Shown here piece after piece: positions 44,479-61,505 of a stretch of DNA of 64,000 nucleotides. A program made the translations under genes and the position numbers. The number at the start of each line of letters is the position of its first letter. Within the stretch, counting starts at the first letter, position 1. A model generated the notes under the pieces. It ran no database searches, was not told where the DNA came from, and was given only the letters and a program-made list of their open reading frames with translations. Source of the DNA: Desulfurispirillum indicum S5 (GTDB taxonomy: Bacteria; Chrysiogenota; Chrysiogenetes; Chrysiogenales; Chrysiogenaceae); the NCBI RefSeq assembly GCF_000177635.2, contig NC_014836.1:1810001-1874000 (forward strand). Reading direction: 5' to 3'.

Positions 44479-44551
44479 TTGTGCCCTGCTTCGCAGTGGC
44501 ATCCCTTCGGGACTCGCCTGCGGCTCGCGTTCCGTTTGCTTCGCAAGCCGT
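44479..44551 (+). repeat. 73-bp direct repeat, family D, copy 2
   Basis: The second copy of the family D repeat ends one base before the transposase start at 44553. It differs from copy 1 at a few positions only. Confidence 0.8.
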
Positions 44552-44552
44552 A

Positions 44553-45602
44553 ATGTTCGTTCTTTTCACCTTTCTGGCGCATCGGTTCCTGCCGAAATAC
44601 GACGTCCGGATGCAGCTGCTGATGTTCCAGATCAGGATGCTGCGCGACCGGATCGACGACCAGCGCATTGTCCCCACCCCGGAGGAGCGGGCCGAACTGC
44701 TGCGGCTGGGAAACGAGATCAACCACGACGTCGCCGATGTCATGCTGGTGGTCAAGCCGCAAATCTATCGGCGCTGGCTGAGTCCGAGGGCCAAGACCCG
44801 CACTCCGAAACCGGCCGGACGTCCCGGCACCGCCGAGGATATCGTGGCGTTGATCCTGCGCATGGCGACCGAGAACATCTCCTGGGGCTACAAACGCATC
44901 CTCGGCGAGCTCAAGAAACTTGGCATTTCCGTGGGGCTCACCACCATCCGCGACATCCTGAAGCGCTCCGATTGTCCGCCGCCTCCCGAGAAGACCAAGA
45001 GCAAACCCAACCTTCCCTGGTCGAAGTTCGTCAGCGCCCACATGGAATCGCTGGTGGCCTGCGACTTCTTCACCAAGCCGGTCTACACCCTTCGCGGCAG
45101 GTTCGACGCCTATGTGCTGGTCTTCCTGCATCTCGGCAGCCGCCGGGTCTACCTGAGCCAGCCGACCTTTCATCCCGACGAGGCCTGGGTGATGCAGCAG
45201 GCGCGGAATATGACCATGTGGCTCGATGACCACGGCATCGAGGCCAAATACCTGATTCACGACCGCGACACCAAGTTCACCAAGCAGTTCGACGCCTTCT
45301 GGAACCGAGCCGGGGTGCGCTGCATCCGTATCCCGCCGAAAGCGCCGCAGGCCAACGCCTTCTGCGAATCCTTCATCGGCACCTGCAAGCACCAGTGCCT
45401 GAACCACTTCGTCTGCTTTGGCCTTGGCCAACTGGCCCACATCAACCGCGTCTGGCTTGACTACTACCACACCCAACGGCCCCACCAGGGCACGGGCAAT
45501 AACGTCATCTCCGCCGATTTCCGCCGCACATCCGCTGGTCCGGTCAAGCGAGAGGAGCGGCTCGGCGGCATTGTCGCCTGGTATGAGCGGGAAGCGGCGT
45601 AA
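44553..45602 (+). CDS. Integrase-core (DDE) transposase
   Basis: A 349-residue protein from the ATG at 44553; the frame is open further upstream but only through the family D repeat. About residues 1-120 contain a helical N-terminal part and a helix-turn-helix (WGYKRILGELKKLGI). About residues 140-320 form the rve integrase core with the triad D in VACDFF, D in LIHDRDTKF and E in NAFCESFIG. It is similar to stand-alone integrase-type transposases. Terminal inverted repeats of its element are not obvious to me. It sits at the left edge of the defence island and could mark how the island arrived. Confidence 0.82.
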   Translation: MFVLFTFLAHRFLPKYDVRMQLLMFQIRMLRDRIDDQRIVPTPEERAELLRLGNEINHDVADVMLVVKPQIYRRWLSPRAKTRTPKPAGRPGTAEDIVALILRMATENISWGYKRILGELKKLGISVGLTTIRDILKRSDCPPPPEKTKSKPNLPWSKFVSAHMESLVACDFFTKPVYTLRGRFDAYVLVFLHLGSRRVYLSQPTFHPDEAWVMQQARNMTMWLDDHGIEAKYLIHDRDTKFTKQFDAFWNRAGVRCIRIPPKAPQANAFCESFIGTCKHQCLNHFVCFGLGQLAHINRVWLDYYHTQRPHQGTGNNVISADFRRTSAGPVKREERLGGIVAWYEREAA

Positions 45603-45757
45603 ACCACACTTCCTCGATGTAACATCCGCGCCCGTTTTCCGCAAAGTAGTATTGCTTCCGGAAAAGATTTCGGACGGCGGTTCGGTTTCCAAAAACGGAA
45701 TCGAATGGAATCGCTTCCCGGTTCGACAAACCATTTGCTTTTTCCGGCACGCCAAGC

Positions 45758-47131
45758 ATGAATGACACCGATTGCCAAAACGAACAGGGAGCACCGGGCC
45801 ATGTCATGATCGAATGCCTGAAACAAATCATCCGCGAATACGAGGAACTTGAGCCGCCGGGCGAACTGCTGCCCCGGCGTATCGCCATTGGCAGTCTGCC
45901 GGGCAAGGTCTCGGTGGTCACCAGCGTCAGGGGGAGCGGCAAGACCATCTTGCTGCGCCAGCGTATCCGGCAGCTGATCGAGGGAGGGGTGCCCCGTGAG
46001 AACATCCTCTCTCTCGATCTGGCCGACGACCGGCTTTACTGGCTGCGGCATGAAAATCCGGACCTCATCCTGGAGGCGTACTTCGAGCTCCATCCGCAGA
46101 AACGCGGCAGCGAGACGGTTCACTGTTTTTTCGACGAAGTGCAGGCGCTCCCGCACTGGCAGCTCTTCATCGAGCGCCTGATGCGCACCGAAAAGTGCGA
46201 GGTCACCGTCGCCGGGTCCTTGCTGCCCGCACCGGAGGAGGAAACCGCCAGCCCTCTGACCGGACGGATCGTCTCCTGGGAGATCTTCCCGCTTTCGTTC
46301 CGGGAATTCCTCGACGGCAAGGATATCGATAGCGACGGCCCCTTATCCACCAAGCAGCGGCTGACTATCCAGAAGGCATTCGAGGACTATTGGCAGGTCG
46401 GCGGCTTCCCCGGCGTGAACCGACGCGACCAGCAGCAGCGCGTTGAAGCCCATCAGGCGAACTGGAAAACCATCCTCGCCAGCATCATCGGGCATCACAA
46501 CATCTCCCACCCTCGGGCGGTGATCGATCTGGCCCACTGGCTGGTGGACAACACCGGCTTCTTCTATGCCATCAGTCACCTGACCGATTACCTGAAATCC
46601 CTCGGCCACCGGGTGCGCAAAAGCTCGGTGGTCGATTGGCTCGTCGCGTTCGAGGATGCCGGGCTGCTGTTCAGCGTGAACATCTTTTCCAACTCGCCGA
46701 CCCGGATCAGCGTCAATCCCCGCAAGGTCTACTGCATCGACCACGCCCTGGCGGCCTCGGTCAGCTCCGGCATCCTCACCAACCGCAACAGCCTGCTGGA
46801 GAATCTGGTGTTCACCGCGCTGCGCCGGGTGACGCCGGAGATCTTCTACCACAGGACCAAGACAGGCCGAGAGGTGGACCTTGTCGCGCTGCTGCCTTCA
46901 GTGCCGGGGCAAGAACAAGCCATCATGCTGGTCCAGGTCTGCGCCTCGCTGGCCGATCCCCGCGTCAGGCAGAGCGAAGTGCGTTCCCTCTCCGAAGCCA
47001 TGGTCGAGCTGGCGGTGGCGGAGGGGACCATCGTCACCTGGCGCACCGATGAGACCATCCCCGTGGGCTTCGGCACCATTCAGGTCGTGCCGGTCTGGCG
47101 GTTTCTGTTGGAGACAGAACCACGAATTTAA
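45758..47131 (+). CDS. AAA_14/DUF4143 family ATPase
   Basis: A 457-residue protein. Walker A is SVRGSGKT (residues 56-63) and Walker B is CFFDEVQ with D126/E127. About residues 50-170 form the AAA_14 domain. The C-terminal half is DUF4143 (about 230-420), with YCIDHALAASV, LLENLVFTAL and YHRTKTGREVDLV; the last resembles the PD-(D/E)XK-like core of this family. Such ATPases are common on mobile elements and near defence genes, with no firm function. An internal start at 45806 is possible because neither start has a clear ribosome site. It is convergent with the primase-helicase. Confidence 0.85.
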   Translation: MNDTDCQNEQGAPGHVMIECLKQIIREYEELEPPGELLPRRIAIGSLPGKVSVVTSVRGSGKTILLRQRIRQLIEGGVPRENILSLDLADDRLYWLRHENPDLILEAYFELHPQKRGSETVHCFFDEVQALPHWQLFIERLMRTEKCEVTVAGSLLPAPEEETASPLTGRIVSWEIFPLSFREFLDGKDIDSDGPLSTKQRLTIQKAFEDYWQVGGFPGVNRRDQQQRVEAHQANWKTILASIIGHHNISHPRAVIDLAHWLVDNTGFFYAISHLTDYLKSLGHRVRKSSVVDWLVAFEDAGLLFSVNIFSNSPTRISVNPRKVYCIDHALAASVSSGILTNRNSLLENLVFTALRRVTPEIFYHRTKTGREVDLVALLPSVPGQEQAIMLVQVCASLADPRVRQSEVRSLSEAMVELAVAEGTIVTWRTDETIPVGFGTIQVVPVWRFLLETEPRI

Positions 47132-47161
47132 AATAGCGGCTCGGCTTATTTTAGGTTCGTG
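47121..47161. terminator. Convergent hairpin between the DUF4143 ATPase and the primase-helicase
   Basis: CACGAATTTAAAATA (47121-47135) and TATTTTAGGTTCGTG (47147-47161) form a 15-bp stem with two wobble pairs. It lies across both stop codons and could terminate transcription in both directions, although it is AT-rich. Confidence 0.5.
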
Positions 47162-49563
47162 CCGTTTCCTAAAACTACGGTCTCCATCGGTTTGATCTCG
47201 TACCCCATGGCTCTATAGCCGCGCTGCCGTTTGTCCCACATGCGGTTGAGCTGGGGATGATCGGTCTCGGCATAGTCGTAGATGCGCACATCCTGTTTGT
47301 CGGCGTGTTCCCGGTGCAGGCGTCCCGCGTATTGCTGCAAGGTTCCCTTCCAGGATATCGGCATGGCCAGCACCAGGGTGTCGAGCGGCGGATGGTCAAA
47401 GCCTTCACCGATCAGGCGGCCGGTGGCGAGTAGCACCCTCGGTGCCGACTCATCCAACGCATCCAGTTCCGCGAACACAGCCGTTCGCTGCTTCTTCGAC
47501 AAGCGGCCATGCAGAATGAAACAGTTCTCGACCTCATCCCCCAGCGCCTCCCGCAACAGCGACAGATGATCCGTTCGCTCGGTAAGCACCAACACCTTTC
47601 GTCCTTCGCGGTAGGCGGCCAGTACATCCCCGGCGATGCGGCGGTTGCGGGTCGCATCGTTGGCAAGGATGCGGAACACATCCTGAATCGGTGAATCCGG
47701 CGGGATCTCCGGCGCGGGCAGCACCTTCGGCCATACTTCAAGTTGCGCCGGGGCGGTTTCCGGTCTGGCGGCGCTATGTCGGATAGGCCCGCACTGCATG
47801 AAGATGATCGGCTGATGACCGTCGCGGCGTATCGGTGTGGCTGTCAGGCCCACCACGAATTTCGCCTTGGCTTGTTTGAGGATCGCTTCGAAGGAAAAGG
47901 CCGACAGGTGGTGGCATTCGTCGATGATGATCTGCCCGTACTGGTCGAGCAGTTCGCCAAGATCCTCCCGACGGGAAAGAGACTGCATGACGGCGATGTC
48001 GATCTTGCCGGACGGTTTCTTCTTGCCGCCGCCGATGACGCCCAAGCTTCCTTTCGGGAACTCAAGAAATCCGGTCAATCGTTCCTGCCACTGCCGCAGC
48101 AGTTCGGTGCGATGGACCAGCACCAGCGTGCTGACCTTACGCCGGGCGATCAGGGCTGCTGCAGTGACGGTCTTACCGAAGGCCGTCGGGGCACAGAGTA
48201 CGCCGACCTCGTGTTTGAGCATCTCCCGTACCGCTGCCTTCTGGTCCTTGCGCAAGGTCCCGGTGAACTTGGCCGTCACTTTCCGTCCGGCCAGGCGTTC
48301 GTCCTGCAGCTCCGGATGGATGTCATTCTCCTGCAACAGGTCGAGTGCCGCATCGAGGCAGCCACGGGGCAGGCCGATATGCTGGGGGAAATTCTCGGCG
48401 CAGCCGATGATGCGCGGTTTGTTCCACACCGGCAGGCGCATGGCCTGGGCCTTGTAGAACTCCGAATTCTGGAAGGCTGCGAGTCGGATCAGGCGGTTGG
48501 CCAGCGGCTGGGGCAGATCGGCCTTGGCGATGAAAACCTGGTTGGCCAGCACCAAGATCAGCGATTCCGGTAGTGAACCGGTAATTCTTGCGGGCACAGG
48601 TGAAGGACGCTGCCATGGCTTATTGTCTTCTTCCCCGGCAACAAAGGCCACATCCAGGGGATGGCGGCTGCCGCTGGCCCGCAGGATGGCGTCTTCCAGG
48701 TCCCGCCGGGACATGGGGCGGATGGATGACAGAAAAGCCCACTGGTCCGAATGGGGTTGCAATTGTTCATTAACGAAGACGCTGCGCCCTGATTCCCTCG
48801 GCTGTTTCTGCAGGGGCAGCGCGATCAGATTGCCGAAGCCACCCTTGGGCATGGTGTCCTGGTTGGGAAACAGCCGATCGTAGCTGGCCAGGGATAATTG
48901 CCGGGTGCGGTCGCAGGTGTGGCTGATCAGTGCGGTCCCGAGCTGCCGGGCCTCGCGGGCCGGAACCGGCTCGGCAAAAAAGATCCAGGCGTGAGCGCCA
49001 TTTCCGGAGCGGGAAATCTCCAGCGACGCCGGAATGCCGAGTTCGCGACAGGATTGCATGAAAGCTTTGGCATCCTCCCGCCAGTCGGCCTCATCGAAGT
49101 CAACCGCCAAAAAACAGCAGCTGTCGTCGCTCAGGAGTGGATAGACGCCGATGGTCTGTTTCCCTGCCAAATGGTCATAGATCACCTGATCGGTCACCGG
49201 CAGCAATTGGCGCTGGTTGCAGTCGCCGCATTTCACCCGAGGCTTGTGGCAGATGCCGGGCTTCCACTCGTTACCACAGGCTGGTGAATAGCCTGACGTG
49301 CCCTTGGCCGAGTCCCAGCGCTGCGGATAGACATCCTCCCGCCCCCGAAAAAGCCGGCGGAACAGGGCGATCTTGTCGTCGGTGGTGAACTGGGTTGGGA
49401 CTGATATGAATTCAGGTGGGTCGGGGACAGGTTCAGGGATGGCAGGTTCTTCCCAGGCGATACCGTGCTGGGTCAGCAGATTTTTGAGGCGGGCGTTCTC
49501 CTCGCGCAGACGCCGTAGTTCATCGTGTTCATTCGGGCTCTTGTCACTCTTCGGCAAATCCAT
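47146..49563 (-). CDS. TOTE-type archaeo-eukaryotic primase fused to an SF2 helicase
   Basis: An 805-residue protein. A short coiled coil (residues 14-32) is followed by a primase domain. GYSPACGNEW and HKPRVKCGDC suggest a zinc knuckle. LAVDFDE gives D155 and D157, the catalytic DxD, and SGNGAHAWIFF gives H191. LFPNQD and GGFGNLIALPLQ are AEP-TOTE landmarks. A SF2 helicase follows, with Walker A APTAFGKT (458-465), DECH (548-551), GLTATPIRRDG and the C-terminal QYAGRLHR. It matches the primase and helicase modules of TOTE conflict proteins; no C-terminal nuclease is visible. The only ribosome site is very close to the ATG, so coupling to the upstream mini-ORF is likely. Confidence 0.85.
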   Translation of the reverse strand: MDLPKSDKSPNEHDELRRLREENARLKNLLTQHGIAWEEPAIPEPVPDPPEFISVPTQFTTDDKIALFRRLFRGREDVYPQRWDSAKGTSGYSPACGNEWKPGICHKPRVKCGDCNQRQLLPVTDQVIYDHLAGKQTIGVYPLLSDDSCCFLAVDFDEADWREDAKAFMQSCRELGIPASLEISRSGNGAHAWIFFAEPVPAREARQLGTALISHTCDRTRQLSLASYDRLFPNQDTMPKGGFGNLIALPLQKQPRESGRSVFVNEQLQPHSDQWAFLSSIRPMSRRDLEDAILRASGSRHPLDVAFVAGEEDNKPWQRPSPVPARITGSLPESLILVLANQVFIAKADLPQPLANRLIRLAAFQNSEFYKAQAMRLPVWNKPRIIGCAENFPQHIGLPRGCLDAALDLLQENDIHPELQDERLAGRKVTAKFTGTLRKDQKAAVREMLKHEVGVLCAPTAFGKTVTAAALIARRKVSTLVLVHRTELLRQWQERLTGFLEFPKGSLGVIGGGKKKPSGKIDIAVMQSLSRREDLGELLDQYGQIIIDECHHLSAFSFEAILKQAKAKFVVGLTATPIRRDGHQPIIFMQCGPIRHSAARPETAPAQLEVWPKVLPAPEIPPDSPIQDVFRILANDATRNRRIAGDVLAAYREGRKVLVLTERTDHLSLLREALGDEVENCFILHGRLSKKQRTAVFAELDALDESAPRVLLATGRLIGEGFDHPPLDTLVLAMPISWKGTLQQYAGRLHREHADKQDVRIYDYAETDHPQLNRMWDKRQRGYRAMGYEIKPMETVVLGNGTNLK

Positions 49564-49828: not shown

Positions 49829-51847
49829 CTATTGGCTCCTCTTTCTGAGTCTTCTTTTCACTTCGACATCAAGATCATCGCGAAAAACTTCTCTCATCGC
49901 CTGGTAATGTTGGTTAATAGCTACCTCATCCCAAGGATCTTCGTTCATCATCAAGTACTGTTTGATGCTGTCGATGGTGTTGTTCCGGTAGTATTCCTTC
50001 TTCGCCTGCGGCATGAAATTGCTCAAACGGGAGTTCTTGCTGTGGCTGATCAGGCAGAGGTTTCCGAAAGAGTTGAGTGTGTCGGCTGGCAATGTGTCAT
50101 GCCCCGGAAGCGGATTCTGGGGATAGTAATGTTCCACAGAGCTGCGGAATGTGAACTCGTAAGCTTTGATGACAGGGTCAGAATCCTTGTGCTTCAACCA
50201 AAGCAAATAGTCGAGATAGTTAAACACCAGGTTGTTCTCTATTTCCCCAAATGACAACCGGCTACTTAGATTGGCCTCGGATAATACGTCTGGTTGCGAT
50301 TTACATTTACCGTATCGGTCATAAATAATCTGGTAGTAGCCCGAATCGCTATGTCCCCCAAGGAACCGATCAAAAACAAAGGCCCTCGCCGCTCTTTTCA
50401 AATAGCCTAGATAGTGACCAGCGGCTAACTCTTCCCCCCTGTACAGGCTTTGATTTTTTTTGCCCTTTCTAAACAAATAGCTCAATGCGGCATTGAGCCA
50501 GTGCTTGTAAACAAGCGTCGGAGTCGATACGTGAAATGCGGCCAGGAGCATAAGAATCCGGCGGTTGATATCATCCTGGCCGTTTTCTTCCCCAAAGGTA
50601 TTAACATAGTAACCTTTCTCGGAGCGCCTCTTCTGCCCGCCATCGGACCACTTGTAGCGTTTCAGGCTCCAGCCATCCGTCCCCCGGATGAACTCCCGCT
50701 TGAGAATGTAGTGGTCGTACAGGAATTTACATTTCAGCAGGGCGAACCCAAATTCCTTCACTTCATCTGGATCGTCCTTTTTGAGCAACTCCTCTTCAAA
50801 TATGGCGATGAGGCGCTTGTCATCGAGAGGAATGTCCCTGCCGGTGGAGACCCGCAAAACATGCAGAAGGAAGTTCGGGAAGTTGATAACGGAATTGAAC
50901 CGTTCGGAAACCTCGTCATCGCCCCCAGATGACTCCCCATCCGCCTGGCCAACATGAGAAAGAATGTCCGTGAGCGTCATGGCGACCACGTCTCCTCCCC
51001 CTACTCGGGAGCCTTTGGCGACAGCCTCCTGAACATCATCAAAATCCTGTGGCAAGAACTGGCCCCAGTCCTGACGCCCGAACAATTCATGCCGCTGCTC
51101 CGGAGCAAATCCTGCCTGGACGTACTTCTCCATATTGGCGCAGGCTTCCCAAACGCGATGAAAACAGTCCTTGCTTTTCGTTCGTTCCGTCTCGTCCGGG
51201 ATTCGATTCAGCACCTCCAGAAGACGCGACTTGAGGACCTCATGCTTTTCAAGTTGCTCTCCTCGGTTATTCATGATCTCGAAGTAGTGATTCAGATCGG
51301 TATCGTGGGGTACGGTGACCCGCATGATCTGGACCTTCTCGAAGAGGTAGCCGGAAAAGGCAGCCTCCGAAACGTTATGCTCCGCCAGCTTCTGCGGCAA
51401 CACTTTCTGGATGATTCGATACCCGTTGAGAATGGCGGAATTGATGTCATCCGACGGCAACGTATCGGTGTGATTAGCAAATATTGCTGAGAAGGTCCGC
51501 TGAGAATGCTCCCGGCACTCGAAGTCCAACGCCAGACGGCTATACCAGGAGACGTCGGGTTTCCCCTCATTTTTCAGGAACGATACCAGGAGAGACAGGG
51601 TTGTGAGTCGTTGCTGGCCGTCTATGGTCTCATATACGGTAGCGCCATTGGCGGTTGGCCGCTCAAAGACCACCAACGTTCCGATATAGTAATGCTGTTC
51701 TCTGTTGCTGTAGTCGATAACATCCTGAATAAGTTGGGTGATCTCCCCCTCATCCCATGCATAGTTCCGCTGGTACATCGGGATTCGGTAGAGCACATCG
51801 CCTTCGAGAAGATGTTGGACGGAGAGCTGGTCAATGTGGTTGTTCAT
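49829..51847 (-). CDS. DUF262 and DUF1524 (GmrSD-like) protein
   Basis: A 672-residue protein. IPMYQRNYAW (22-31) and IDGQQRLTTL (75-84) are the nucleotide-binding DUF262 (ParB/Srx-like) motifs. MNNRGEQLEKHEVLKSRLLE is the third DUF262 motif. The C-terminal part is DUF1524, with SVEHYYPQNP (H573) and LNSFGNLCLISHSKNSRLS, the His-Me finger nuclease pattern. GmrSD relatives cleave modified DNA, with DUF262 coupling NTP hydrolysis to the nuclease. It overlaps the upstream DUF262 gene by 17 bases, so both are probably made together. Confidence 0.88.
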   Translation of the reverse strand: MNNHIDQLSVQHLLEGDVLYRIPMYQRNYAWDEGEITQLIQDVIDYSNREQHYYIGTLVVFERPTANGATVYETIDGQQRLTTLSLLVSFLKNEGKPDVSWYSRLALDFECREHSQRTFSAIFANHTDTLPSDDINSAILNGYRIIQKVLPQKLAEHNVSEAAFSGYLFEKVQIMRVTVPHDTDLNHYFEIMNNRGEQLEKHEVLKSRLLEVLNRIPDETERTKSKDCFHRVWEACANMEKYVQAGFAPEQRHELFGRQDWGQFLPQDFDDVQEAVAKGSRVGGGDVVAMTLTDILSHVGQADGESSGGDDEVSERFNSVINFPNFLLHVLRVSTGRDIPLDDKRLIAIFEEELLKKDDPDEVKEFGFALLKCKFLYDHYILKREFIRGTDGWSLKRYKWSDGGQKRRSEKGYYVNTFGEENGQDDINRRILMLLAAFHVSTPTLVYKHWLNAALSYLFRKGKKNQSLYRGEELAAGHYLGYLKRAARAFVFDRFLGGHSDSGYYQIIYDRYGKCKSQPDVLSEANLSSRLSFGEIENNLVFNYLDYLLWLKHKDSDPVIKAYEFTFRSSVEHYYPQNPLPGHDTLPADTLNSFGNLCLISHSKNSRLSNFMPQAKKEYYRNNTIDSIKQYLMMNEDPWDEVAINQHYQAMREVFRDDLDVEVKRRLRKRSQ

Positions 51848-53216
51848 AGTACCTCATCTCCTTGAACAGCTTCTCAATCGCCTTGGTTTTGCTGGAACGG
51901 TTCTGGGTGACAACCGGCAGGCTGTACCCCAAAAAGTCGCCGGGGTGGGTGGCATCCTTGAGCCGTTTGAAAAGGTTGTTCTCCAGGACGTAGTTGTCCA
52001 TGCTGGCGAGCTGGAGAACCTGCATCTGCAGACGCAGACTGTAAGCCCAGATGAAAATTTTCTCGATTGCCCGGGAAATCTCGGCAAACCCGAACTTGTC
52101 AATGTAATAGATGAGCAGGCAGTCGAACATCACCCGGACATACCGGTCACCGGTGCGATTCCTGCCTTCGTAGGACGTGACTGCCGCAAAGACTCTTTGG
52201 GCGAATCCGTTGAGGCCTGCCCTGCCGATGCGCTTCTGCAAAGCCTTGGTATCAACGGCCCAACCGACTTCGCCAAGATAGTGATCCGTCATCTCGAAAA
52301 AGCGGCGGCCGTTGATGATGATCTGGTCGAGGTAAAAAGGGAAAGCCATCGTGTGACCATCAATCTTCCGCTCGTAACCCCCGTTGTAGTGGTCAACGAA
52401 ATGGTGGGCCAGCCGGAGGTGTTCAATATAGGGGTAGTTTGAGATGGTCTCGATGTTGACGCCCTTGAAAAGGTCCGTATCCTCCTTGCCGAAGTACCTG
52501 GCGGGCTCCCCTTTGGTCCAGTTGCGGATTCGGTACAGGTATTGGGCGAAAAGTGTCGACAGCTCAGCGGTCTCGCTGTTCTCCCACTTGGCCACCGTGC
52601 CCCTCTTCAGATGGTCCTCGTGGCTGCTGAACTCACGCAGGTGGAACGCCTTGAGCAAATCATGGGGCTCAAGATCCTTGCCCCGGGCGTTCTGGGAATC
52701 GAAGAACTGGAAGGCTTCGGAGATATCGGTCAGGGTGAAGGTGACGACCTCACAGCGGTTGAGCAGGAAGTTGATCTGCTCTTCATCAAAATCCGCACGG
52801 TCGATGATGCGGGCGATCTCAAGGTAGTTAGCGTGAATGTTCACCTTGGAGATATCGCTCTCAAAGCAGGGGACGGGCATTTTGCGTTCAAGCTCATCCA
52901 GTTGCTCTTTAAGGTCGTTACGTTCCAGTCTGTCGCGGCGCAATCGGATCAAAGCATGGACCGCCAGCATCAGGGTAATGGTGCGTTGTTGGCCATCCAC
53001 GATGTTCTTCTGGCGGTCATCGAGATGGAAGACTACGGTACCGAGGCGGTAGGATGTCTTGTCTCTGAAAGCGCCGATATCCGAGAAGAGCTGACCGACG
53101 TGGCGGCTGGTCCATTTGTAGGGGCGCTGATATTGGGGGATGGCAAGATTGGGGGCGGCCAGGAGCTGGCGGACAGAGATGATCCCTTTTTGAAGAGGCG
53201 TGGCCACTACGTTCAT
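51831..53216 (-). CDS. DUF262 protein without a nuclease domain
   Basis: A 461-residue protein. IPQYQRPYKW (26-35), IVDGQQRTITL (72-82) and FFDSQNARGKDLEPHDLLKA are the DUF262 motifs. The C-terminal half is helical and lacks a recognisable DUF1524 motif. A GGAGAAGG site precedes the ATG. It is like the RloF-type proteins found in type I restriction loci. Together with the next gene it suggests a two-protein GmrSD-like system. The upstream gap 53217-53360 has AT-rich sequence but no clear promoter. Confidence 0.87.
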   Translation of the reverse strand: MNVVATPLQKGIISVRQLLAAPNLAIPQYQRPYKWTSRHVGQLFSDIGAFRDKTSYRLGTVVFHLDDRQKNIVDGQQRTITLMLAVHALIRLRRDRLERNDLKEQLDELERKMPVPCFESDISKVNIHANYLEIARIIDRADFDEEQINFLLNRCEVVTFTLTDISEAFQFFDSQNARGKDLEPHDLLKAFHLREFSSHEDHLKRGTVAKWENSETAELSTLFAQYLYRIRNWTKGEPARYFGKEDTDLFKGVNIETISNYPYIEHLRLAHHFVDHYNGGYERKIDGHTMAFPFYLDQIIINGRRFFEMTDHYLGEVGWAVDTKALQKRIGRAGLNGFAQRVFAAVTSYEGRNRTGDRYVRVMFDCLLIYYIDKFGFAEISRAIEKIFIWAYSLRLQMQVLQLASMDNYVLENNLFKRLKDATHPGDFLGYSLPVVTQNRSSKTKAIEKLFKEMRYYEQPH

Positions 53217-53360
53217 ATCACCTTCTCCTTGCCGCGAATATAACCATTATTTTATTCATTATCCTCACAGATCCAGCTATTTGCTCCAGGCTGTCACACC
53301 CCTTTGACATAGTTCTGCACCCGTTTGATGTCACAAGCCATGTCACGAGTTTGTCGCAAG

Positions 53361-54368
53361 TTATTCATTACCATGCTGCGCCAGCCACTGGCGGCCCTTG
53401 TCGGTGAGTCTGTATTTCTGCAAGCGGCTGTTGGGCTTGTCGGGAATGGTCATCTCAATCAGGCCGTCGGCCAGGGCCGGTTTGAGGTAGCGCTCGCGGA
53501 AGGATTTGCGATCCGAAAGCCCCAGGGCAGATTGCAGTGCCTCGCGGCCCATCTCGCCCCGGATCTCCGCCAGCAGCTCGCCGACTTGGGGGGCGACTTG
53601 AGGGCTGACTTGGGGGGCAGAGATGGTCACGGTATCCAGAATCATCCGCAGCATGAAGGCGATAAAAGGAGCGGAATCGGTCTTTTGGGTGCTTTCCTGA
53701 ATTGCCTGGTAGTACTCGGCCTGGTGCTCGAAGATCAGGCTTTCCACCGGGATGTCGGCGAACAGGGGATTCCAGCGAGCCAAGATCAGGCTCTGCCAAA
53801 GCCGCCCCATGCGGCCGTTGCCGTCGGCGAAGGGGTGGATGAATTCGAACTCGTAGTGAAAGACCGAACTGGCGATGAGCGGGTGGGCGTCGGTGGCGGC
53901 CAGCCAGCCGAACAGGTCACCCATCAGTTGCGGCACCCGGTCGGCGGGCGGGGCCATGTGGATCACCTGTTGGCCCGCCATCACCCCCACGCCGCCATGC
54001 CGATACAGTCCCGCTTCGTCGATCAGGCCGGACATCAAAATCCGGTGCGCCTCCAGCAGGTCCTTTTCCACACCGGGCTTCCAGGTGTCGAAGCGGTCAT
54101 AGGCGGCCAGGGCGTTTTTCACCTCCTGCACCTCGCGGGGCGGGGCGATGACCCGCTTGCCCTCCAGAATCGCGGTGATCTGCGCCTCGCTCAGGGTGTT
54201 GCCTTCAATGGCCAGCGAACCGCGAATGGTGCGAATACGGTTGATACGCCGCAGCCGCAAGGCTCTCGCCTGGTCAGTGAGCACGGTCAGCCGCCCGATG
54301 GCCTCGCTGATGGCGGCGACCCGGTTCAGGATCTCGAGGGTGATGGTATAGGGTGGCTGATATTTCAT
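53361..54368 (-). CDS. Fic family protein, class II with N-terminal inhibitory helix
   Basis: A 335-residue protein from the ATG at 54368 (GGGAGG upstream). HPFADGNGRMGR at residues 178-189 is an intact Fic core with catalytic H178. SLAIEGN at 51-57 fits the [S/T]xxxE[G/N] inhibitory motif, so activity is probably self-restrained. A C-terminal winged-helix-like part (about 270-335) could bind DNA; it includes QVSPQVAPQVGELLAEI. Fic enzymes usually AMPylate proteins. Its start overlaps the mini-ORF stop (ATGA). Target unknown. Confidence 0.92.
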   Translation of the reverse strand: MKYQPPYTITLEILNRVAAISEAIGRLTVLTDQARALRLRRINRIRTIRGSLAIEGNTLSEAQITAILEGKRVIAPPREVQEVKNALAAYDRFDTWKPGVEKDLLEAHRILMSGLIDEAGLYRHGGVGVMAGQQVIHMAPPADRVPQLMGDLFGWLAATDAHPLIASSVFHYEFEFIHPFADGNGRMGRLWQSLILARWNPLFADIPVESLIFEHQAEYYQAIQESTQKTDSAPFIAFMLRMILDTVTISAPQVSPQVAPQVGELLAEIRGEMGREALQSALGLSDRKSFRERYLKPALADGLIEMTIPDKPNSRLQKYRLTDKGRQWLAQHGNE

Positions 54369-54451
54369 GTCGCCTCCCTGGCTGCTTCTTCGATACAGGT
54401 GATCGCCTGGGTCATGCGGTTGGTGATGGTGAATGCGGGGGTAAAGGTCAT
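54365..54451 (-). CDS. 28-codon mini-ORF between the HNH nuclease and Fic genes
   Basis: The ATG overlaps the HNH stop (ATGA) and the TGA overlaps the Fic ATG (ATGA). The peptide begins MTFTPAFTITNRMTQAIT and ends CIEEAAREAT. FTPAFTITNRM resembles the start of other Fic-type proteins, so it may be the remnant of a Fic paralogue. Alternatively it only passes ribosomes from one gene to the next. Confidence 0.45.
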   Translation of the reverse strand: MTFTPAFTITNRMTQAITCIEEAAREAT

Positions 54452-55542
54452 GGCGCGGCTCCCTCCTTTGCAATAACATCAAACAGACCGGCCCGTTGAC
54501 AACCTTTGAGGAAGGCCGATTTCAGGAAGCTACTGTCTGCCAGTGGATTCTTATCGGCCTGCCGATTCAATGTAATCAGGAAGTCTGCAGGCGAGCGTTC
54601 ATCTTCCTGCCACTCATCAAGCACTTGTGTCAGCCAGTATTTTCCGGATGATTCGTCGCAGCATTTCGCCTTGTAACGCTCATCAATTCCGTAAACCTCT
54701 TTCCAGGCCTCGATCTCCTCGCGGACGGTGTCTGGGCCAAAGGTGAGTTGGATGTCGGCGGGTGTCAGGCGATCAATATCCGGGGTATTGAGGACGACAG
54801 TGATTTCGATTGGGGAGGCATCGGTCGCATAGGGATAGAAAGCCTTGCGGCGTCCGGTGGCATTGCGTGCCGGGTCTTTGCTGAGTTTGTAACTGCTATT
54901 GCAGTAATGGCAGGCCGGGGCGAGGTTGCGAAAATTGATCGAATTGAAGGGATAGATCGCCTTGGGTAGATAATGGTCATAGGCCTCGCGACCAGTGTGA
55001 TAAACACCAAGCATTTCCGTGATCCCGCAAAACGGACATTTGCCGGTGGTGTTCGCCTGCATGAATGCCTGATAGTGCTCATCAATCCGGCCGATCTTTT
55101 CCCGCAGCGCCGCAAGATCGAGCAGTTGCTGGGAATAGAGCCCCTTGAAAAATGACTCCAGTTGCCCGCTCAGATCAGGATGGATGGCGGCGATATCGGC
55201 ATAGCGGGCGATTTGGACTGCCGGGTCATTGGCACAGACCTTCTCGATGTCGTTGTTGGCCTGGTACCACCGATTGAGTCGGTCGATTTGCTTCGGGGTT
55301 AATGGGGCAAAGAGCTCATAGATCGCTTTGATGTCTTTGTAAAACTGCTTGCCACGCTCGGGGGCATTCGTCGCAAACCCGAAAGCTGAAAGAACTTCTC
55401 TTAGGTCTGGCTCGTTTTCAAACAGATCGAGACTGAAAGCCAATCCGATAGGCGCTTTGCACCACACCTCGAAAAAAATGAAGTCAATGAACGACTGCAT
55501 CTTCTCCATGGTATGGGGGACGTAGGTATAGGCGAACAGCAT
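54448..55542 (-). CDS. HNH nuclease-like protein partnered with the AAA ATPase
   Basis: A 364-residue protein. CPFC (C169, C172) and CHYC (C211, C214) can bind a structural zinc. YDHYLPK has the H190 that would be catalytic, and NFRNLAPACHYCN supplies the HNH asparagine (N206). The N-terminal 150 residues are helical and unrecognised. Its start overlaps the ATPase stop (TGATG). An ATPase-HNH pair of this layout resembles PtuA-PtuB (Septu) systems. The domain call is firm; Septu identity is inferred. Confidence 0.85.
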   Translation of the reverse strand: MLFAYTYVPHTMEKMQSFIDFIFFEVWCKAPIGLAFSLDLFENEPDLREVLSAFGFATNAPERGKQFYKDIKAIYELFAPLTPKQIDRLNRWYQANNDIEKVCANDPAVQIARYADIAAIHPDLSGQLESFFKGLYSQQLLDLAALREKIGRIDEHYQAFMQANTTGKCPFCGITEMLGVYHTGREAYDHYLPKAIYPFNSINFRNLAPACHYCNSSYKLSKDPARNATGRRKAFYPYATDASPIEITVVLNTPDIDRLTPADIQLTFGPDTVREEIEAWKEVYGIDERYKAKCCDESSGKYWLTQVLDEWQEDERSPADFLITLNRQADKNPLADSSFLKSAFLKGCQRAGLFDVIAKEGAAP

Positions 55543-57371
55543 CAGCCCTGTCCCTCCCCGCCATTATCCGAGCCAGCGTCGAGAATGGTCTTGATGAGCA
55601 GTACCTTTTCCACCGAGTCGCCGAGCTGGCGGTTGATCTCTGTAATGAGCTGCTCCTTGTCTTCGCCCTGTTCAAAACGCTGACGAAGACCCTCCAGCAT
55701 GGCCTGGGCATGGCCGCCGATGGTCTCGCGCTTGCCGAAGGTGGCCATGGTAATCTTGTTGATGGACGCACCGAGGGTGTTGTAATTCGGATTTCTAACG
55801 CTGACCTCGCCTGTCTCCCTATCCTTTTTGAACACCAGCACCTTTTCCGGTCGGCTGTCGGAGATCAGAAACGGCGTGTGGGTGGTGACAAGCATTTCAC
55901 GTTCATAACGCTTCATTGTCGATTGCTGCTGATTTCCCTCTTTTTCAGTCACTTTGAAACAATCATGCAGGCGGGTGACGAAGTTGGCGCGCCAGTCGGG
56001 GTTGAAATGGGTCTCCGGTTCGTCGAGCAGGAACAGGCTCTGGGTATTCTTGAACAGCAGGCAGAGGCCCAGGGTGTGCAGCAGCTGATGTTCGCCGTCG
56101 GAGAGGTTCTTGAGCATCACCGGCTCGGCCACGTCGGTCTTGCTGAACTTAACAAATTTAAAGCGCATGATGCGTTCATCCGAGGCAAGGGTCGGCACCG
56201 TCTCGCTCACATAGTGGCTGTCGGACTGATACAGATCGGCCTTCAATGAGTCGCTGACGGCAAAAAGGTTAAGCGTCAGCAGCACCTGAAAGGCCTGGAA
56301 CAGGGCGATGGGCGAGTGGTTGACTTCGAAATCGAAGTTATCGCGGAACGCCTGCCGGGTGGCGTCGTTGACCCGGTAATCGAGATAGAGGGTGTCGCTG
56401 GCCTCGTCGAGATACCAGCAGGTGGCGCATCGCATCAGGCGCGGGATGATTTTGTCGGCGGTGTCGCCGCCGTCAAGCAGTTGCACCAGGTTGATCCGAT
56501 ACCGCTTGGCCTGGCTCTCGCCTTCGCTGACGCTCAGGGCCGGGTGATTTTTGACAATATCCTCGGTGGACTCCTGCTTGTTCTGATCCCGACTGCCGAA
56601 GGCCGGGATCTGGTTTTCCTCCACCTCGATGCTGCGCCGGATGATGATGCGGAACTCCCTGAGTTCCTCGATTTTCACATCATCGCGAAAGGGTGTGAGC
56701 GCATTGGCATCCTGAAACAGCAGGTTGCAGAGCAGGATCGCCTGGCTGAAGCCGCTGTCGAGGTAGACCAGCCGCGATTCCGGGCGGCCGGGATAAGGCA
56801 GCTGCTGCTTCAGCGCCTGCCCGTATTCATCGAACTGGACAAAACGCATCTTGAAAAACGGCAGGCTGAGGATTTCGTTCTCGCCGGAGGAGTAGCCCAG
56901 AATGTAATCCGGTAGCAGTTGCCGGGCCAGGGTCTGCTCCACCGCGCCTTCCTGCTCCGCATGGTTGAGCAGGAGACACTTGGGCGCTTCGCCGGGCTGT
57001 TTGACGATGCGCACATGGGCCTGGCCGTCGTGGCCTTTGGACTTCAAGGCATCCTGCGGGCGGATCAGGTATTCGATCTCGAAGCCGTCCGGGATGGCGG
57101 TTTCACTGCGGAAGCCGCCGGGGTTGGTCTCTTCCTCGAACCGGAAGCTGTCCGGCAGGTTCTCCAGATAAATGCACTCCAAGTGGTAGAAGATTGCCGC
57201 CAGCGCCTCCAGCAGGTTCGACTTGCCGCTGCCGTTGGGACCGGCGCAGACGAAGGGGGCAAAGCGCTGCTCCTCCTGCAAGTCCCAGTCGCTGCGGAAG
57301 CGGTGCTCAAAACCCGCTTGCAGGCTGCGAAAGCCCTTCGGGTTGGTGATTTTGAGGCGTAGGAGTTTCAT
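55542..57371 (-). CDS. Restriction-locus AAA ATPase (RecF/PtuA-like)
   Basis: A 609-residue protein. GPNGSGKS at residues 44-51 is Walker A, LSDGEHQLL near 423 is the ABC signature-like motif, LFLLDEPETHFNP near 444-456 is Walker B, and TTHTPF near 494 is the switch His. The spacer between these (about 100-400) is long and variable. It belongs to the SMC/RecF-like family often found inside type I restriction loci. It starts 56 bases after hsdS, in a gap bearing a CGCGAAA-rich repeat, and is coupled to the HNH gene. Confidence 0.9.
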   Translation of the reverse strand: MKLLRLKITNPKGFRSLQAGFEHRFRSDWDLQEEQRFAPFVCAGPNGSGKSNLLEALAAIFYHLECIYLENLPDSFRFEEETNPGGFRSETAIPDGFEIEYLIRPQDALKSKGHDGQAHVRIVKQPGEAPKCLLLNHAEQEGAVEQTLARQLLPDYILGYSSGENEILSLPFFKMRFVQFDEYGQALKQQLPYPGRPESRLVYLDSGFSQAILLCNLLFQDANALTPFRDDVKIEELREFRIIIRRSIEVEENQIPAFGSRDQNKQESTEDIVKNHPALSVSEGESQAKRYRINLVQLLDGGDTADKIIPRLMRCATCWYLDEASDTLYLDYRVNDATRQAFRDNFDFEVNHSPIALFQAFQVLLTLNLFAVSDSLKADLYQSDSHYVSETVPTLASDERIMRFKFVKFSKTDVAEPVMLKNLSDGEHQLLHTLGLCLLFKNTQSLFLLDEPETHFNPDWRANFVTRLHDCFKVTEKEGNQQQSTMKRYEREMLVTTHTPFLISDSRPEKVLVFKKDRETGEVSVRNPNYNTLGASINKITMATFGKRETIGGHAQAMLEGLRQRFEQGEDKEQLITEINRQLGDSVEKVLLIKTILDAGSDNGGEGQG

Positions 57372-60674: not shown

Positions 60675-61505
60675 CTATTTTCCTTTTTCCAGTCGCCTGA
60701 TGGCCTTGCTTCCCACTATGGAAGTCATCTGTTCAATGGCCATTTTATTCAGCGCGACGAGTCTTTTATTTTGTGGGATTCCCTGCTTGATCAGCTCCGC
60801 ATTCATGCTTTCCAGGTTGGATAGCACAATGAGCTGCTGGATGGTCGCTTCATCCCGCATGTTGCCCTTTGCTTCGGGGTTTTGTTCTTTCCATTCCCTG
60901 GCCGTCTTGCCGAACAGAGCCACATTGAGCATATCGGCTTCGCTGGCGTAGGCGAACGCCTGCTGCTGTTTGGAAACCAGCTGCGGGATCAGGTTGTCTT
61001 TGATGGCGTCGGTGTGGATCTTGTAGTTGATTTTGGAAATGACGCGATTCACGTTCCACTCAAGCGAGATGCGGCTGTTTTCATCGGCCTTGAGGCGTTG
61101 ATAATCCTTGATGATGTAGAGCTTGAACTCGGCGGAGACCCAGGAAGCAAACTCAAAGGCGATATCCTTGTGGGCAAAGGTGCCGCCGTATCGCCCTGAT
61201 CTTGAAAGCATCCCCACAGCGTTGGTGGCGGCAATCCACTTCTGGGGTGACAGAGTAAAGGCGTTGGAACCGGCCTCATGGATAAAGGAGTCGAATTCGA
61301 CCCCTTTAAAATCCGGGTTGTTCAACTGTTCCCAAAGGCCAAGAAACTCGATGGTGCTGCGGCTGCGCATCCAGTTTTTAACCACATCCTTGGGCTCGTC
61401 GGGATTTTTGTAACGGGCGATGTCGGTCAGGGAAATGAAATCGTCTTCGTCTCCTTTGGACAAAACGGTGATTTCCGTGCCCTTGGCATTAATGGTCGCT
61501 TTCAT
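60675..61505 (-). CDS. KilA-N domain protein
   Basis: A 276-residue protein. ISLTDIARYKN near residue 25 and the segment to about 120 (WEQLNNPDFKGVEFD, SGRYGGTFAHKDIAFEFASWVS) match the KilA-N domain, a DNA-binding fold found in phage and restriction loci. The C-terminal half is helical, with a KQQQAFAYASEADMLN stretch. It lies between hsdR and hsdM. A regulatory or antirestriction-related role is possible but unknown. Confidence 0.88.
   Translation of the reverse strand: MKATINAKGTEITVLSKGDEDDFISLTDIARYKNPDEPKDVVKNWMRSRSTIEFLGLWEQLNNPDFKGVEFDSFIHEAGSNAFTLSPQKWIAATNAVGMLSRSGRYGGTFAHKDIAFEFASWVSAEFKLYIIKDYQRLKADENSRISLEWNVNRVISKINYKIHTDAIKDNLIPQLVSKQQQAFAYASEADMLNVALFGKTAREWKEQNPEAKGNMRDEATIQQLIVLSNLESMNAELIKQGIPQNKRLVALNKMAIEQMTSIVGSKAIRRLEKGK

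What the first reader, a model, noticed from the sequence alone, without database searches (positions are those of the whole stretch)
49829..53216. Overlapping pair of DUF262 proteins, only one with a nuclease domain
The two genes overlap by 17 bases and both keep the DGQQR motif, but only the downstream one has the DUF1524 His-Me finger. GmrSD is usually one DUF262 plus one DUF1524. A duplicated DUF262 suggests a heteromeric sensor-effector arrangement, possibly against modified phage DNA.
Basis: partly seen in the sequence, partly recalled or inferred. Interest (0 to 1): 0.6.

Follow-up and report, generated by a model that had tools for sequence, protein, structure and literature searches.

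The report
TgvAB-type two-protein type IV restriction system
Two overlapping bacterial genes encode a pair of related proteins that very probably act together to cut chemically modified phage DNA; this is another copy of a two-protein defence system (TgvAB) described in 2024, so it is real and well conserved but not new in kind.

Summary
On the minus strand, gene A (53216-51831, 461 aa) and gene B (51847-49829, 672 aa) overlap by 17 bases. Both carry a DUF262 domain with DGQQR, and only B has the DUF1524 nuclease. The pair is not a local duplication. In every relative where the DNA runs far enough, A is followed by B on the same strand, usually with an 8-nt overlap (87 intact pairs; 414+ genomic relatives; 902 plasmids). 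A and B DUF262 domains form two separate, matching clades. The arrangement is already published as TgvAB (Vibrio cholerae VPI-2, 2024), where both proteins and both DGQQR motifs are required to restrict phages with sugar-modified hydroxymethylcytosine. A Vibrio genome carries this family in the same HsdM-HsdS-A-B-HsdR order as VC1769-65. The V. cholerae sequences were not held here, so direct homology to TgvA was not measured. I file it as a new member of a known kind. Added here: DUF7834 marks the partner, it occurs with B wherever this could be checked, and the model of A overlays DUF262 plus the helical linker of DndI without the nuclease.

The parts
51831..53216 (-). Gene A, TgvA-like partner protein, 461 aa (DUF262 + DUF7834, no nuclease)
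52641..53165 (-). A: DUF262/GmrSD_N domain (residues 18-192)
52983..52997 (-). A: DGQQR nucleotide-binding motif (residues 74-78)
   Evidence: DGQQR in 42 of 43 aligned relatives
51885..52607 (-). A: DUF7834 helical domain (residues 204-444)
   Evidence: E 5e-76; AF2 all helical, pLDDT mostly over 85
53225..53230 (-). Shine-Dalgarno AAGGAG of A
49829..51847 (-). Gene B, TgvB/GmrSD-like protein, 672 aa (DUF262 + linker + DUF1524 nuclease)
51218..51808 (-). B: DUF262/GmrSD_N domain (residues 14-210)
51608..51622 (-). B: DGQQR motif (residues 76-80)
   Evidence: invariant
49886..50221 (-). B: DUF1524 His-Me finger nuclease (residues 543-654; H573, N596, N605)
51831..51847 (-). 17-nt overlap of A and B (translational coupling), with the SD of B at 51863-51852 inside A

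Best explanation
[quoted passage not shown] By inference from TgvAB, BrxU, SspE and DndI, the DUF262 domains of A and B bind and hydrolyse NTP and sense hypermodified phage DNA. That switch licenses the DUF1524 His-Me finger of B to cut or nick the DNA. A is an obligate partner without a nuclease, equivalent to a GmrSD chain that keeps DUF262 plus a helical linker (DUF7834). Most simply, A and B form a heteromer that takes the place of the homodimer seen in BrxU and DndI. Shown here: domains, intact motifs, overlapping operon, invariable pairing and joint inheritance across phyla. Shown in V. cholerae by others: need for both proteins, both DGQQR motifs and the nuclease residues, and activity against glucosylated or arabinosylated hmC phages. 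Inferred: physical complex, role of DUF7834, and the target of this particular copy.
For: Domain make-up and motifs. A is always followed by B where it could be checked: 87 intact pairs plus partial or contig-end cases. A/B distance correlation 0.934 against a permutation maximum of 0.128. A and B are two clades (98/91 and 99/87 support) with matching branching. A Vibrio genome (L113) has HsdM-HsdS-A-B-HsdR, the order reported for VC1769-65. HsdM lies upstream of A-B in Shewanella, Pseudoalteromonas and Acinetobacter loci, genera named in the paper for the five-gene cluster. TgvAB: both genes, both DGQQR and H571/N602 of TgvB are required, and Tevenvirinae are restricted (PMC11411939). The AF2 model of A (pLDDT 91) aligns from residue 9 to 455 with DndI residues 4-474, 356 residues, Z 14.5, rmsd 6.4 A.
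Against: VC1767 and VC1766 themselves were not in the collections, so homology to TgvA was not measured directly. In the window the pair is not between HsdS and HsdR, though TgvAB is mostly outside that cluster (1,341 against 79 hits, PMC11411939). No complex was modelled. The target modification of this copy is unknown, and the related GrwAB has a different range (7-deazaguanine as well). Operon-linked genes share history anyway, so the distance correlation shows joint inheritance, not contact.
Confidence: 0.85

Rival explanations
1. B is a self-sufficient GmrSD enzyme and A is an accessory that shields it from phage inhibitors such as IPI* or controls its abundance. This is the alternative raised by Vizzarro et al.
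For: B has the full DUF262-linker-DUF1524 architecture. Single-chain relatives work alone (BrxU, Eco94GmrSD; PMC8565348, PMC4437046 abstract).
Against: TgvB alone gives no protection, and the DGQQR motif of TgvA is needed. A was never seen without B in about 100 loci where this could be checked, and its nucleotide motif is kept in 42 of 43, which is more than a passive shield needs.
Confidence: 0.15
2. The pair belongs to the GrwAB type of two-protein GmrSD rather than the TgvAB type.
For: GrwAB is also two DUF262 proteins with one DUF1524 (PMC12137116).
Against: In GrwAB the nuclease-bearing protein is named first and its partner, encoded by the second gene, has a long, different C-terminus. 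Here the partner is first and carries DUF7834. GrwAB-like pairs in the same phylum form another clade.
Confidence: 0.04
3. Neighbouring genes (Septu-like AAA ATPase and HNH protein, Fic, type I RM) are needed, and the pair is only part of a larger system.
For: Same-strand run HsdR-KilA-HsdM-HsdS-AAA-HNH-Fic-A-B. Fic relatives lie near A-B in L029, L055 and L060.
Against: The closest relative L011 (90/82% identity) lacks all of these within 9 kb, and the plasmid copy read stands without them. tgvAB alone protects E. coli.
Confidence: 0.05

Closest known systems
[quoted passage not shown] cholerae VC1767-VC1766; PMC11411939)
   Same: Two genes in the same order: partner with DUF262 but no nuclease, then DUF262+DUF1524. 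Same motifs; near a type I RM locus; the same five-gene cluster is found with this family in a Vibrio genome (L113).
   Different: Here the pair follows HsdS-AAA-HNH-Fic instead of lying between HsdS and HsdR. Target untested. The paper describes TgvA as similar to GmrSD only in DUF262; this family also carries DUF7834.
GrwAB (V. cholerae WASA VSP-II; PMC12137116)
   Same: Two-protein GmrSD-like system, one DUF1524, both DUF262 needed.
   Different: Reverse gene order, and a partner with a long unrelated C-terminus; separate clade for the similar pairs found here (L198, L199, L201, L203-L205).
BrxU / Eco94GmrSD / SspE / DndI single-chain enzymes
   Same: B has the same DUF262-linker-DUF1524 plan; best solved-structure matches are DndI (9jfl) and SspE (7drr), then BrxU (7p9k).
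   Different: They act as single proteins (BrxU and DndI as homodimers; PMC8565348, PMC11662687); here B always has a nuclease-less partner.

Membership tests
TgvAB | Two adjacent genes: first DUF262 without nuclease, second DUF262 + DUF1524 | tested here: met
[quoted passage not shown]
   A: Q30R31, D74-R78, F172-N176. B: Q26R27, D76-R80, F189-N193
TgvAB | His-Me finger residues H...N...N in the second protein only | tested here: met
   H573, N596, N605 in B; none in A
TgvAB | Sequence homology to VC1767 and VC1766 | tested here: inconclusive
   No held Vibrio genome showed TgvB numbering H571/N602. Indirect support: L113 has HsdM-HsdS-A-B-HsdR with this family.
TgvAB | (Not defining; found in 79 clusters against 1,341 tgvAB hits) position between HsdS and HsdR of a type I RM operon | tested here: not met
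   In the window the pair follows HsdR-KilA-HsdM-HsdS-AAA-HNH-Fic on the same strand. The paper reports most tgvAB outside such clusters.
TgvAB | Both genes required; restriction of phages with sugar-modified hmC | not testable with these tools
   needs phage assays
GrwAB | Nuclease-bearing gene first; partner with long C-terminal unknown domains | tested here: not met
   Partner is first, 461 aa, with DUF7834
Single-protein GmrSD/BrxU | Active without a DUF262 partner | not testable with these tools
   Genomic pairing is constant, which argues against it
SspE / DndI | Linked to phosphorothioation genes (ssp or dnd) | tested here: not met
   The genes scanned between 44.5 and 64 kb include no Dnd or Ssp modification genes

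The most novel reading that the evidence does not exclude
A (DUF262 + DUF7834) is the dedicated modification sensor: DUF7834 helps read the modified base and its identity sets the phage range, while B is a nuclease that only an A-B heteromer can switch on. Paired DUF262 systems with different partner types (TgvAB, GrwAB) would then be an evolvable scheme of exchangeable sensors on one nuclease.
Probability: 0.2. Interest if true: 0.5.

Novelty: new member of a known kind. Interest (0 to 1): 0.22.

Why it matters
Why TgvB needs TgvA is stated as an open question in the papers. The survey here gives that question a handle. The partner has a defined domain (DUF7834), it was never seen without its nuclease partner, it keeps the nucleotide motif, and it has moved with B across bacterial phyla, an archaeal bin and hundreds of Klebsiella plasmids. 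The best-fitting model is a GmrSD chain without its nuclease. Separate GrwAB-like pairs in the same phylum suggest that splitting the sensor over two chains is common in this superfamily.

Tried and rejected
Recent local duplication: rejected by the tree. DUF7834 as a divergent copy of B's middle region: hhalign aligned only the DUF262 part, although the whole A model can be overlaid on DndI residues 4-474 (helical overlays are weak evidence). V. cholerae tgvAB: searched in 228 held Vibrio genomes; 15 carry the family but none matches TgvB numbering. Island inserted at the tmRNA gene upstream of hsdR: no repeat of the ssrA 3' end in the window. NCBIfam has no model for either protein; PADLOC matches them only to HEC-06, Orf5 and SspE through DUF262. 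No paper in the library mentions DUF7834. A complex of A and B could not be modelled with the tools.

Full report
Observation. B (672 aa) has DUF262 and DUF1524. Both keep QR, DGQQR and FxxxN; only B keeps the His-Me residues. Each has a good Shine-Dalgarno sequence, B's lying inside A. Against the nearest relative, L011 (Desulfobulbaceae, 90% and 82% identity), changes are mostly at third codon positions, so both are maintained proteins.

Recurrence. In the phylum of the window genome, DUF7834 occurs in 6 of 51 genomes, and in all six the next gene is a second DUF262 gene; the DUF1524 hits at the same places complete the pair. A scan of GTDB species genomes with an alignment of A gave at least 414 relatives; the best 80 were read. 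Together with Vibrio and viral loci this gives 87 intact A-B pairs (one Vibrio locus was fetched twice), all on one strand, with overlaps of 8, 4, 11 or 17 nt in 70 of them. The remaining A genes sit at contig or locus ends or are followed by a B whose reading frame is broken. Hosts include Pseudomonadota, Bacteroidota, Verrucomicrobiota, Planctomycetota and a Methanobrevibacter bin. On plasmids the family is in 902 records, 854 of them Klebsiella; the Klebsiella plasmid copy read has the same order and an 8-nt overlap without a type I RM operon beside it.

Relationship of A and B. Profile comparison aligns only the DUF262 part (209 columns, 23% identity, probability 99.6). In a tree of DUF262 domains A is one clade (98/91) and B another (99/87), with the same sub-groups (for example window+L011, L016+L017+L025, the Vibrio group). 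Other GmrSD proteins lie outside. A divergent Vibrio pair (L207), which also has DUF7834, branches beside A and beside B respectively. Several outgroup branches are long, so deep placements are unsure. The pair is therefore old and inherited as a unit: the distance correlation is 0.934 against at most 0.128 in permutations, which shows joint inheritance but not contact.

Structure. AF2 models are good (A pLDDT 91.4, B 86.3). Solved relatives are DndI (9jfl), SspE and BrxU. The A model aligns with DndI residues 4-474 over 356 residues (Z 14.5, rmsd 6.4 A), that is DUF262 plus helical linker, short of the nuclease. This suggests, but does not prove, that A is a GmrSD-like chain without its cutter. 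BrxU and DndI are homodimers (PMC8565348, PMC11662687), so an A-B heteromer is a natural model; I could not test it.

Known system. Vizzarro et al. 2024 (PMC11411939) describe TgvAB: TgvA with DUF262, TgvB with DUF262+DUF1524, embedded in a type I RM operon. Both proteins, both DGQQR motifs and TgvB H571/N602 are needed, and it restricts Tevenvirinae with sugar-modified hmC. They report 1,341 homologous pairs. A review adds that T2 mutants that no longer glucosylate their cytosines escape, and describes GrwAB (PMC12137116). One held Vibrio genome (L113) has HsdM-HsdS-A-B-HsdR with this family, the published order. VC1767/VC1766 themselves were not in the collections, so the membership claim rests on architecture, motifs and gene order. 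GrwAB has the nuclease-bearing protein named first and another partner; pairs of that kind exist in the same phylum as a separate clade.

Context. The window genome is one contig of 2,928,377 bp; that size matches my memory of Desulfurispirillum indicum S5, which no tool confirmed. The pair follows a same-strand run HsdR-KilA-HsdM-HsdS-AAA(TIGR04435)-HNH-Fic, and is followed by a TOTE-type primase-helicase. L011 has the pair without these neighbours, so the pair is a separate cassette.

Verdict. The finding is real, correctly read in outline, and already explained by TgvAB: a new member of a known kind. What this adds is the DUF7834 signature of the partner, its constant pairing and the structural hint about what it is.

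Noticed in passing
window 54448-57371 (-): TIGR04435 'restriction system-associated' AAA ATPase (845 bits) overlapping by 1 nt a 364-aa HNH-like protein with no Pfam hit but weak PADLOC PtuB/PDC-M01B matches: a Septu-like pair inside a type I RM operon.
   Followed up: partly
window 53361-54413 (-); L029 12288-13871; L055 5432-6436; L060 6725-7751: A Fic protein directly upstream of gene A; relatives (53-71% identical) lie near the A-B pair in Rhodanobacteraceae and Acinetobacter loci, on either side.
   Followed up: partly
window 47146-49563 (-): An 805-aa TOTE-type archaeo-eukaryotic primase fused to a helicase, 265 nt downstream of B; a 724-aa relative lies near the pair in Bacteroides luti (L087).
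   Followed up: no
window 60675-61505 (-): KilA-N domain protein between hsdR (61620 to about 64433, running out of the window) and hsdM.
   Followed up: no
L198, L199, L201, L203, L204, L205: GrwAB-like pairs in the same phylum: DUF262+DUF1524 gene first, then a long DUF262 protein without a nuclease; the partner DUF262 domains form their own clade, weakly sister to their nuclease partners.
   Followed up: partly
L207 1013-4409: A divergent DUF7834 + GmrSD pair in a Vibrio genome, outside the main A and B clades but in the same order with an 8-nt overlap.
   Followed up: partly
plasmid collection; L216: TgvAB-like pairs on 854 Klebsiella plasmid records, most of the family's plasmids being typed conjugative; the one read is a 32-kb plasmid typed IncFII,IncX3 with the pair between an SprT-family protease and a phospholipase D-family gene.
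   Followed up: partly
L046, L050, L085; L217 8394-11129: A is intact but the B reading frame is broken or interrupted (an IS1 transposase in a Picosynechococcus plasmid), hinting at loss of the nuclease first.
   Followed up: no
L213 2294-3343 (window genome, outside the window): A third DUF262 protein (349 aa) with DGLQR in place of DGQQR and no nuclease; very long branch.
   Followed up: no
window 44481-47131 (+): IS integrase-core ORF followed by an AAA_14/DUF4143 ATPase (PADLOC PDC-S01) at the edge of the defence gene cluster.
   Followed up: no
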